Shown here: positions 2,595 to 50,795 of the stretch, in pieces
Layout: each line of letters begins with the position of its first letter
Numbering within the stretch: the stretch's first letter is position 1
Source: Salinilacihabitans rarus
Lineage (GTDB): Archaea; Halobacteriota; Halobacteria; Halobacteriales; Natrialbaceae
Direction of reading: 5' to 3'
DNA: 64,000 nt
Assembly: GCF_024296665.1 (NCBI RefSeq)
Contig: NZ_CP100762.1
Span: 682,001-746,000, forward strand
Made by a program: the position numbers and the translations under genes
Notes under the pieces: generated by a model
Databases searched by the model: none
What the model was told of the DNA's origin: nothing
What the model saw: the letters and a program-made list of their open reading frames with translations, nothing else

Positions 2595-3569
2595 ATGGAG
2601 TACACGACGCTCGGCGACACCGGGATGGAGGTCAGCCGCATCTGTCTCGGCTGCATGAGCTTCGGGTCGAGCGACTGGCGCGAGTGGGTCCTCGACGAGG
2701 AGGAGGGTCGCGAGATCGTAGAGCGCGCGATCGACCTCGGGATCAACTTCTTCGACACCGCCAACATGTACTCGCTGGGCGAGTCCGAGCGCGTGCTGGG
2801 GCGGGCGCTGGAGGGCCACCGCGAGGAGTCGGTCGTCGCCACGAAGGTCTACTTCCCGATGCGCGAGGACGACCCGAACTCGGGTGGCCTCTCGCGGAAG
2901 ACGATCGAGCAGGAACTCGACGCCAGCCTCGACCGACTGGGGATGGAGACGGTCGACCTCTACCAGATCCACCGCTGGGACTACGAGACGCCGATCGAGA
3001 CGACGCTCTCGGCGCTCGACGACGCCGTCCGTCGCGGCAAGGTGCGGTACGTCGGCGCCTCCTCGATGTGGGCCCACCAGTTCGCCGAGGCGCTGCACGC
3101 GAGCGATCGGCTGGGACTCGAACGATTTCGAACGATGCAGAACCACTACAACCTCGTCTACCGCGAGGAGGAACGCGAGATGCTGCCCCTCTGTGCGACG
3201 GAGGGGATCGGCGTGCTCCCGTGGTCGCCGCTGGCCCGCGGCTACCTCACGCGCCCCCACGAGGAGGTCGACGCGACGACGCGCGGGGCAGCCGAGGAGC
3301 GCCTGTACGAACACCCCTACCGCGAGGGCGGCGGCCCCGAGATCAACGAGCGCGTCGCCGAACTCGCCGACGAGTACGACGCGACGATGGCCCAGATCGC
3401 GCTTGCGTGGCTGTTGCACCAGGAGCACGTCGACGCCCCCATCGTCGGCACCACGAGCGTCGAGCACCTAGAGGAAGCCGTCGCGGCCCTCGACATCTCG
3501 CTGTCGCGGTCGGACCGCGAGTACCTGGAGGAGCCCTACGAACCGGTCCGCGTCTCCGGCCACGAGTAG
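2595..3569 (+). CDS. Aldo/keto reductase
   Basis: A 324-aa TIM-barrel oxidoreductase. Visible family motifs are the N-terminal LGDTGMEVSRICLGCMSFG, the FFDTANMYSLGESE stretch holding catalytic Asp and Tyr, the Lys in VVATKVYFP, and the His in YQIHRWDYETPIE, giving the Asp-Tyr-Lys-His set. The C-terminal IVGTTSVEHLEEAV segment is the NADP-binding region. It resembles the YajO/Tas-like branch that reduces aldehydes or ketones with NADPH; the substrate is not predictable. The start ATG 2595 follows an A/T-rich box (2564-2573) at a promoter-like distance. Confidence 0.9.
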   Translation: MEYTTLGDTGMEVSRICLGCMSFGSSDWREWVLDEEEGREIVERAIDLGINFFDTANMYSLGESERVLGRALEGHREESVVATKVYFPMREDDPNSGGLSRKTIEQELDASLDRLGMETVDLYQIHRWDYETPIETTLSALDDAVRRGKVRYVGASSMWAHQFAEALHASDRLGLERFRTMQNHYNLVYREEEREMLPLCATEGIGVLPWSPLARGYLTRPHEEVDATTRGAAEERLYEHPYREGGGPEINERVAELADEYDATMAQIALAWLLHQEHVDAPIVGTTSVEHLEEAVAALDISLSRSDREYLEEPYEPVRVSGHE

Positions 3570-49375: not shown

Positions 49376-49871
49376 ATGACACGGAGTTCCCGCGCTCCTG
49401 GTCGAGAAATTCTCCGCCAGTGACGACGTTCGCGTCGTCCCGTCCGACGGGTCGGTCCGCGTCGAGGTCGGTGCCGAAACGTACGAACTGAGCAGAGCGG
49501 ACGCCGTCGAACTCCGCGAGGGGCTCACCGAGGCGCTGACCGACCGGCGGGAGTTCGTCGACACCGCCGCGACCCGCCGGGCCGACGGGACCTACGTCGT
49601 CGAACGCCGACGGGCGAGTTCCAGCGGTCACCGCAAGGTGTTCGACTCCTTCGACGACTGCGTCGCACTCTACGATGGCCTCCCGGCGGAGTTCACCGCC
49701 GAGGACGTCGCCGCCGGCGGCCTCTCGGGCGGGCGTCGTCACATGCTCGTCCGGCACTTCGCCGAACACCCGGCGTTCGACTGCGACCTCGTCTCGAGAC
49801 AGCCGCTGACCGCGCGAAAACGCGTCGCCGACGTCGACGCGACGACGGAGGGGATCCTCGAAGCGGAGTGA
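49376..49871 (+). pseudogene. Small haloarchaeal gene with an apparent frameshift near its start
   Basis: An ATG at 49376 lies about 28 bases after a GTTTTGG box but reads only seven matching residues (MTRSSRA) before the frame becomes nonsense. The next frame is fully coding from about 49398 (LVEKFSASDDVRVVPSDGSV, VGAETYELSRADAVELREGL, then SSSGHRKVFDSFDDCVALYD) to stop at 49871. Joining them needs one base removed between 49376 and 49397. The only good in-frame start otherwise is GTG 49638, which would drop half the protein. Frameshift or sequence error; function unknown. Confidence 0.6.
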
Positions 49872-49924: not shown

Positions 49925-50071
49925 ATGCGAGACGAAGCGGAGATCCGCGAGCAGTACGAGTTCCTCAAAGAGCACCTCGAGAGCGAGGAGATGCGCCACG
50001 AGGGCGTCAGGGAGATGTTCACTTATTACCGTCGCGCGCTCGGATGGGTACTCGAAGAGGAGCACATATGA
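49925..50071 (+). CDS. 48-aa conserved small protein
   Basis: A short acidic, helical protein: RDEAEIREQYEFLKEHLESE, then EMFTYYRRALGWVLEEEH. ATG 49925 begins the acidic helix. Its charge pattern and codon bias support coding. No family function is recognised. Confidence 0.6.
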   Translation: MRDEAEIREQYEFLKEHLESEEMRHEGVREMFTYYRRALGWVLEEEHI

Positions 50072-50129
50072 CCGTTTCTCGCCGACGAAATTCCGTGTAA
50101 ACGTATCACGAACCGGTCCGTTGTCGGTA

Positions 50130-50137
50130 CCTTTAAG
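50130..50137 (+). promoter_or_regulatory. TATA box of the small RNA candidate
   Basis: CCTTTAAG lies about 25 bases before the first hairpin at 50161, the same spacing as TATA to transcript start in this genome. Confidence 0.5.
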
Positions 50138-50159
50138 TTCCCCGAGCGAAATGCTTCAG

Positions 50160-50262
50160 GTGACGCTTCGCTTGGAGGGCCGAAGCGTCAGCGGGGACCA
50201 ATTCAGGGCGGCAAGCGATCGCGTGGCACTTTTCCCGCCACGCGGTTTGCTTTCCTGTTTCG
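50160..50262 (+). ncRNA. Small structured RNA candidate, about 100 nt
   Basis: Two strong hairpins in tandem. The first is TGACGCTTCG (50161-50170) with CGAAGCGTCA (50181-50190) around a 10-base loop CTTGGAGGGC, 10 perfect pairs. The second is CGCGTGGC-ACTTTTCCC-GCCACGCG (50220-50244), extended by a bulged AAGC/GCTT pairing on the outside. A pyrimidine-rich TTTCCTGTTT (50251-50260) follows as a possible terminator. A TATA box at the right distance precedes it. It does not match RNase P, SRP, C/D or H/ACA patterns that I know. No short ORF fits. Confidence 0.55.
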
Positions 50263-50475
50263 TACTCACGCCGTCGAGCCACGGCTCAGTCCGGCGACCG
50301 CTCGACGGCGCCGACTCAGCGAGGAATTGTACCCGGTGAAACGCTCTGAACCCTAAACATGAACTGACGGTTATGCGATCGCCCGAAGTAATCGGTCATC
50401 ACGGTTATCATTCGAGGTGAGCGCAAACGTCCGTCGTCGATAGTAATAGCGCTGTTTGCCCCGTAACGACCCGAC

Positions 50476-50519: not shown

Positions 50520-50795
50520 ATGTACGACCTGACAGGATTCCAGCGTGACTTGCTCTACGTCATCGCTGGTGAGGAGGAACCGCACGGACTGGCGATCAAG
50601 GAGGAACTCGAGGAGTACTACGAGAAGGAGATCCACCACGGACGGCTCTACCCGAACCTCGACACGCTCGTCGACAAGGGTCTCGTCGAGAAGGGGCGTC
50701 GCGACCGGCGGACGAACTTCTACACTCTGACCCGGCGCGGCCGCCGGGAACTCGAGGCGCGTCGGGAGTGGGAGGCCCAGTACGTCGACCTTTGA
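50520..50795 (+). CDS. PadR family transcriptional regulator
   Basis: A 91-aa winged-helix PadR protein: LTGFQRDLLYVIAGEEEPHG, the recognition region HHGRLYPNLDTLVDKGLVEK, and RTNFYTLTRRGRRELEARRE. This short, strongly conserved form is common in haloarchaea. It binds DNA as a dimer; its ligand and target are unknown. It precedes the aminotransferase gene, which has its own promoter. Confidence 0.92.
   Translation: MYDLTGFQRDLLYVIAGEEEPHGLAIKEELEEYYEKEIHHGRLYPNLDTLVDKGLVEKGRRDRRTNFYTLTRRGRRELEARREWEAQYVDL

What the first reader, a model, noticed from the sequence alone, without database searches (positions are those of the whole stretch)
50130..50262. Unannotated structured small RNA with its own promoter
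A TATA box (50130-50137) is followed at about 25 bases by a perfect 10-bp hairpin (50161-50190), a 29-base spacer, a second 8-bp hairpin extended to about 12 pairs (50213-50252) and a pyrimidine run. No coding frame fits. The layout is that of an independent archaeal small RNA of about 100 nt and does not resemble RNase P RNA, SRP RNA, C/D or H/ACA guides known to me. Its neighbour downstream is a PadR regulator.
Basis: partly seen in the sequence, partly recalled or inferred. Interest (0 to 1): 0.7.

Follow-up and report, generated by a model that had tools for sequence, protein, structure and literature searches.

The report
Near-universal haloarchaeal two-hairpin noncoding RNA
This is a roughly 100-letter structured RNA gene, missing from the public RNA family library, that nearly every salt-loving archaeon tested carries in almost the same genomic place, with a 5' half that has hardly changed and a 3' hairpin whose letters change but always still pair; that pattern shows it is a real working RNA, although its job is unknown.

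Summary
At 50132-50138 there is a TATA box, at 50161-50190 a perfect 10-bp hairpin, and at 50204-50258 a second, longer hairpin. BLAST finds the element in 91 of 100 relatives (80 of 82 high-quality genomes). A covariance model finds it in 52 of 53 Halobacteriales genomes and in none of about 240 other Halobacteriota. The 5' hairpin and linker (TGGAGGGCCGAAGCGTCAGCGGGGACC) are identical in all 87 BLAST-found loci examined. The 3' hairpin is rewritten everywhere but keeps pairing: all 20 of its pairs show changes on both sides (397 cells against 102±8 in shuffles). BRE and TATA are conserved at a fixed distance. Rfam has no match. The RNA normally lies between a 48-aa protein gene and a gene for a RosR-like PadR regulator. 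It is not the PadR leader: PadR has its own promoter, and the order sometimes breaks. Haloferacaceae carry a second copy elsewhere; in Haloferax that copy is, by gene order, probably the catalogued but unexplained sRNA hts10/HVO_2213s. I conclude it is an independent, trans-acting ncRNA with an invariant 5' recognition module and a variable 3' stabilising hairpin with a U-rich loop. Partner and function are unproven; rRNA and start-site antisense tests were negative.

The parts
50124..50138 (+). BRE/TATA promoter element (TCGGTACCTTTAAGT); in homologues C-36 G-35, A-32 and TTTAA at -29 to -25 relative to the first base of stem 1
   Evidence: Position profile over 149 non-redundant upstream regions; information 1.4-1.9 bits at BRE/TATA positions against about 0.05-0.1 bits at -60 to -45
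50157..50161 (+). Inferred transcription start region (CA-GG before stem 1); start inferred from TATA spacing, not measured
   Evidence: One search shows C 74% and A 77% at -4/-3; spacing inference only
50161..50190 (+). 5' hairpin: perfect 10-bp stem TGACGCTTCG/CGAAGCGTCA with loop CTTGGAGGGC; stem sequence nearly invariant, loop length 10-12
   Evidence: 8 of 10 pairs never vary in 100 sequences
50191..50203 (+). Invariant single-stranded linker GCGGGGACC followed by AATT
   Evidence: The 27-mer TGGAGGGCCGAAGCGTCAGCGGGGACC (loop to linker) is identical in 87 of 87 BLAST-found loci
50204..50258 (+). 3' hairpin (outer stem CAGGG/CCTG and GGCAAGC/GTTTGC, inner stem CGCGTGGC/GCCACGCG) with U-rich apical loop; sequence rewritten in homologues but pairing kept
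   Evidence: 20 of 20 pairs with changes on both sides; apical loop has a run of at least 4 T in 68 of 100
49925..50071 (+). Conserved syntenic neighbour upstream: 48-aa protein of unknown family
   Evidence: tblastn synteny in most loci; no Pfam or NCBIfam match; 36 of 43 listed Halobacteriales genomes and no other Halobacteriota
50520..50795 (+). Conserved syntenic neighbour downstream: 91-aa PadR-family winged-helix regulator, RosR-like paralogue, with its own promoter
   Evidence: Pfam PF03551 E 2e-18; hsRosR structures E 1e-25; own BRE/TATA at about -48 to -33 from ATG

Best explanation
It is a single-copy, independently transcribed, trans-acting noncoding RNA of about 98-100 nt (about 50158-50258, + strand). 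The 5' hairpin with the exposed loop UGGAGGG, together with the linker GCGGGGACC, is a recognition module bound by a conserved partner, which I think is most likely a protein, so that the RNA works as an RNP or as a decoy. The 3' hairpin is a generic stabilising and 3'-end structure whose U-rich loop could bind the Lsm/SmAP protein. Because the RNA is inherited with, and absent together with, the close form of a RosR-like PadR regulator, it most likely acts in the same regulatory circuit. Shown: the gene, its promoter, its structure, its near-universality, its independence from PadR transcription and its synteny. Inferred: transcript ends, partner, direction of regulation and the Lsm contact.
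For: Presence in 91/100 relatives, in 52/53 Halobacteriales and 0 of about 240 other Halobacteriota. Covariation of the 3' hairpin: 397 double-change cells against 102±8 in shuffles and 69-107 in slid controls. Invariant 5' module in 87/87 unselected loci while the flank at -60 to -41 is 33% identical. Conserved BRE/TATA at fixed distance. The 5' module is kept in the second Haloferacaceae copies and in plasmid copies with unrelated 3' parts, so it is a module. Synteny 48-aa protein - RNA - PadR. Families f2, f9 and f11 lack both the RNA and the close PadR; their best PadR match is 46-54% identical, or none. PadR has its own promoter and lies divergently in Halarchaeum or is distant elsewhere, so the RNA is not its leader. 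A Haloferax paralogue is probably the RNA-seq-detected sRNA hts10/HVO_2213s.
Against: No transcript was measured in this organism. No partner or target was identified. The PadR link rests on gene neighbourhood and co-absence only; the three lineages that lack both may simply be deep branches. The second copy is not near PadR. Deletion of the probable Haloferax copy B (hts10) is viable with mild phenotypes (PMC3956466), although copy A should remain in that strain.
Confidence: 0.72

Rival explanations
1. It is a cis-acting leader (riboswitch, attenuator or RNA thermometer) of the downstream PadR gene.
For: It lies upstream of PadR on the same strand in most genomes; the form is a conserved domain followed by a variable hairpin.
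Against: PadR has its own TATA/BRE next to its start codon. The distance varies from about 400 to more than 2000 bp, PadR is absent nearby in some loci and divergent in Halarchaeum. The Haloferax second copy precedes a gene on the opposite strand. No intrinsic terminator is found.
Confidence: 0.07
2. It is an antisense-type sRNA: the loop UGGAGGG and linker GCGGGGACC form the seed that pairs with several mRNAs, helped by Lsm on the U-rich loop.
For: The exposed G-rich loop and linker are invariant; archaeal Lsm proteins are described as interacting with sRNAs (PMC5852579); the linker complement TCCCCGC is slightly over-represented near starts (16 against 5).
Against: No window of the RNA shows a convincing enrichment of complementary sites within 40 nt of 538 starts once 93 windows are considered. 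Stem bases are as invariant as loop bases, which a simple seed does not explain.
Confidence: 0.2
3. The invariant inverted repeat is a DNA operator, for example for the neighbouring PadR protein, and not an RNA hairpin.
For: PadR/RosR proteins bind palindromic DNA; the arms are invariant without covariation; PadR is adjacent.
Against: The spacing between arms varies (10-12 nt) and the loop and linker are just as invariant. The 3' hairpin covaries strongly, which only RNA pairing explains. No similar site stands before PadR and copies far from PadR keep it.
Confidence: 0.05
4. The RNA exposes a Shine-Dalgarno-like loop (GGAGG) that pairs with the 16S anti-SD and acts on the ribosome.
For: Five contiguous pairs between loop and anti-SD are possible; some H. 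volcanii sRNAs are ribosome-associated (PMC12482152).
Against: Only 5 bp; Haloferax volcanii does not use the SD mechanism (PMC3986360); the longest complementarity to 16S and 23S is no better than shuffled RNA (15 of 60 shuffles as long).
Confidence: 0.08
5. The locus encodes a small protein.
For: An ORF from TTG runs through the element in the window (50121-50339).
Against: Indels of one base in loop and linker, frame differences after GGGGACC, no ATG/GTG start conserved, third codon positions as invariant as others.
Confidence: 0.01

Closest known systems
Haloferax volcanii sRNA hts10 (HVO_2213s), PMC3956466 Tables 1 and 5
   Same: By gene order from cetZ1 (HVO_2204), the second Haloferax copy lies beside the DUF5813 gene, where HVO_2213s is placed. 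hts10 was found by RNA-seq and prediction and has homologues in 18 other haloarchaeal genomes.
   Different: It is reported as 161 nt. The window's copy is the other, ancestral-type copy next to PadR. No family, structure or function was described in that paper.
HVO_2908s and H3.2, intergenic sRNAs shared by Haloferax and Halobacterium vesicles (PMC10927574)
   Same: Intergenic RNAs conserved between the two genera, as this one must be.
   Different: HVO_2908s lies about 30 genes from the PadR locus (which sits a few genes from fen1 = HVO_2873), so it is not the PadR-linked copy; H3.2 could not be placed.
Bacterial 6S RNA, and archaeal RNase P and SRP RNAs, as near-universal single-copy RNAs
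   Same: Lineage-wide, about single-copy, stable fold, invariant core.
   Different: No sequence or covariance-model match; architecture of two separate hairpins with an invariant linker.
RosR (VNG0258H, Halobacterium; HVO_0730, Haloferax), the transcription factor related to the neighbour
   Same: The adjacent PadR protein is clearly homologous (E 1e-25).
   Different: It is a paralogue, not RosR itself; no RNA partner of RosR is known to me.

Membership tests
Independent trans-acting haloarchaeal intergenic sRNA | Own conserved archaeal promoter (BRE/TATA) at fixed distance | tested here: met
Independent trans-acting haloarchaeal intergenic sRNA | No conserved coding frame | tested here: met
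Independent trans-acting haloarchaeal intergenic sRNA | Discrete transcript | not testable with these tools
   Only indirect: probable paralogue hts10 seen by RNA-seq (PMC3956466)
Independent trans-acting haloarchaeal intergenic sRNA | Conserved secondary structure with compensatory change | tested here: met
   5' stem invariant, 3' hairpin covaries
Any Rfam 15 family (RNase P, SRP, riboswitches and others) | Covariance-model score above gathering | tested here: not met
C/D box guide RNA | C box RUGAUGA and D box CUGA | tested here: not met
   Read directly from 50158-50262: neither box present
H/ACA guide RNA | ACA box 3' of a hairpin with an internal pocket | tested here: not met
   No ACA after the 3' hairpin (CTTTCCTGTTTCG); tail not conserved as ANA
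Cis-acting leader of PadR | Always upstream, same strand, in one transcript with PadR | tested here: not met
   (position and promoters; the transcript itself was not measured)
Lsm/SmAP-dependent sRNA | Binding to Lsm | not testable with these tools
   U-rich loop in 68 of 100 sequences is only suggestive
Same gene as hts10/HVO_2213s (copy B of Haloferax) | Same genomic position and sequence | tested here: inconclusive
   Position by gene count from cetZ1 in H. denitrificans agrees; H. volcanii sequence not held

The most novel reading that the evidence does not exclude
A near-universal haloarchaeal RNP: the invariant 5' hairpin-linker module is recognised by the neighbouring RosR-like PadR factor (or another core protein such as RNA polymerase), making it an RNA that directly controls a transcription factor in archaea, analogous in role to 6S RNA or CsrB-type decoys but unrelated to them.
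Probability: 0.2. Interest if true: 0.88.

Novelty: new member of a known kind. Interest (0 to 1): 0.64.

Why it matters
Haloarchaeal sRNAs are described as evolving fast: 22 of 27 tested H. volcanii sRNAs had no homologue in any other haloarchaeon (PMC3956466). An RNA kept across nearly all haloarchaeal families, with a 27-nt stretch identical in every BLAST-found locus examined, is therefore an exception and a strong candidate for a core cellular function. It is absent from Rfam, so automatic annotation misses it. The fixed neighbourhood with a RosR-like regulator, and a second copy in the genetically tractable genus Haloferax, make its function testable by ordinary deletions and pull-downs.

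Tried and rejected
Rfam at gathering and relaxed thresholds, for this copy and divergent homologues: no consistent match. rRNA complementarity of the invariant module: not above shuffled controls. Anti-SD pairing: 5 bp only, and Haloferax does not use SD (PMC3986360). Start-site seed enrichment over 538 genes in 864 kb of the same genome: no convincing window. Repeats of the 23-mer core elsewhere in the same genome: no excess over controls. IMG/VR viral contigs and the phage collection: no match. Reading the RNA as HVO_2908s: rejected because the PadR locus maps next to fen1 = HVO_2873. CdrS regulation, suggested by a ChIP site between HVO_2907 and HVO_2910, was dropped for the same reason. 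Reading PadR as RosR itself: rejected, since H. volcanii RosR is HVO_0730 (PMC3443676).

Full report
WHAT IS THERE. The window is haloarchaeal DNA (G000:C1:682001-746000). Folding extends the second hairpin to about 50204-50258 (-50.3 kcal/mol, z -3.4, 0 of 200 shuffles as stable). The reverse strand folds less exceptionally (z -2.4). The sequence is unique in its own genome.

CONSERVATION. A 201-base BLAST query finds the element in 91 of 100 relatives, and in 80 of the 82 high-quality genomes among them, in 50 of 54 genera. A covariance model (R1) finds it in 52 of 53 Halobacteriales genomes drawn from the phylum and in none of about 240 other Halobacteriota. Named carriers include Haloferax, Halorubrum, Haloarcula, Natrialba, Natronomonas, Halococcus, Halorhabdus, Haloquadratum and Actinarchaeum halophilum. 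Three family-level groups (f2, f9, f11) lack it even with laxer filters. The loci L091-L209 were picked by an exact 27-mer, so their identity over that stretch is by construction. In the 87 loci found by BLAST and not by pattern, the 27-mer TGGAGGGCCGAAGCGTCAGCGGGGACC is nevertheless present without a single change, while sequence 40-60 nt upstream is near chance (33% identity).

STRUCTURE. The two hairpins behave in opposite ways. In a CM-based alignment of 100 sequences (A2), stem 1 has 8 of 10 pairs that never vary. All 20 pairs of the 3' hairpin show changes on both sides: 397 such cells against 102±8 in column shuffles and 69-107 in the six slid controls, with 91% of cells paired overall. 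A2 was fitted to the model's structure, which favours it; the MAFFT alignment A1, not fitted to structure, gives the same answer (73 against 27±4). The 3' hairpin therefore works through its fold, and the 5' hairpin plus linker through its letters. The apical loop of the 3' hairpin holds a run of at least four T in 68 of 100 sequences.

PROMOTER AND INDEPENDENCE. Upstream profiles show a BRE (C-36, G-35), A-32 and TTTAA at -29 to -25, with CA at -4/-3, relative to the first base of stem 1. No frame is conserved. The usual order is a 48-aa protein gene, the RNA, and a PadR-family gene, all on one strand. PadR carries its own BRE/TATA next to its start codon, the distance varies, and in Halarchaeum PadR is divergent. 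So the RNA is not its leader. The PadR protein is a RosR-like winged-helix protein but a paralogue, since RosR of H. volcanii is HVO_0730 (PMC3443676). In the three groups without the RNA, the best PadR match falls to 46-54% or nothing, against 80-89% in most carriers checked. The 48-aa protein is also missing from f11 but occasionally from carriers too. This is consistent with a shared circuit, or with both arising after those branches split.

COPIES. Of 17 family-f5 genomes (the family holding Halorubrum and Haloferax), 15 have two copies; other families have one. In Haloferax (G100, H. denitrificans) copy A lies beside PadR, a few genes from fen1 (HVO_2873, PMC7776575). Copy B lies between a DUF5813 gene and a transducer gene, about ten genes from cetZ1 (CetZ1 = HVO_2204, PMC10927574). 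The H. volcanii sRNA hts10 is HVO_2213s (PMC3956466), so copy B is probably hts10. It was seen by RNA-seq, is conserved in 18 other genomes, and can be deleted with mild growth effects. This is an inference from gene counting; the H. volcanii sequence was not held. Two haloarchaeal plasmids carry the 5' module with different 3' parts, which suggests that the 5' half is a separable module.

HOW IT MAY WORK. Shown: RNA gene, own promoter, invariant 5' module, structure-only 3' hairpin, lineage-wide retention. Inferred: the invariant stem sequence, with no compensatory change, argues for direct recognition of its letters by a partner. A simple antisense seed is not supported, ribosomal RNA pairing is not above chance, and SD mimicry is unlikely because Haloferax does not use SD (PMC3986360). 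I therefore favour a protein-bound trans-acting RNA, in the same circuit as the RosR-like PadR, with the U-rich loop as a possible Lsm site. The partner is unproven.

WHAT IS KNOWN. Nothing in Rfam 15 matches, although Rfam does hold haloarchaeal elements such as leuA-Halobacteria, which was found in a homologous locus. A community study reports 22 conserved haloarchaeal itsRNAs without function (PMC7002113); whether this RNA is among them could not be checked. The kind, a haloarchaeal intergenic sRNA, is known; the family, its structure, its near-universality and its PadR linkage were not found described in the papers searched. Babski et al. 2011, which predicted conserved H. volcanii sRNAs, was not available.

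Noticed in passing
window 49925-50071: A 48-aa protein (MRDEAEIREQYEFLKEHLESEEMRHEGVREMFTYYRRALGWVLEEEHI), strongly conserved and restricted to Halobacteriales, with no Pfam or NCBIfam match; nearly always directly upstream of the RNA.
   Followed up: partly
window 50520-50795: PadR-family regulator, a RosR paralogue, 79-100% identical across most haloarchaea; some genomes carry a second copy about 89% identical elsewhere (G081).
   Followed up: partly
L210 (Halorubrum lacusprofundi pHLAC01) about 3020-3110 and L300 (Haloarcula sp. GH36 plasmid) about 3001-3110: Plasmid-borne copies keeping the 5' hairpin and GCGGGGACC linker but with unrelated 3' parts.
   Followed up: partly
L068, L069, L070 (genomes G022, G089, G019): A 23-mer of the core (GGAGGGCCGAAGCGTCAGCGGGG, or a close form) occurs outside the RNA, in L068 and L070 as part of short tandem repeats; no such excess in the window's own genome. 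Origin unexplained.
   Followed up: partly
window about 49377-49871: DUF7528 gene: only the C-terminal half of the Pfam profile (51-111 of 111) is in the open frame starting at 49638; the N-terminal half may be frame-shifted.
   Followed up: no
L031:742-794: leuA-Halobacteria RNA (RF03001) in a relative's locus, about 0.8 kb from the RNA.
   Followed up: no
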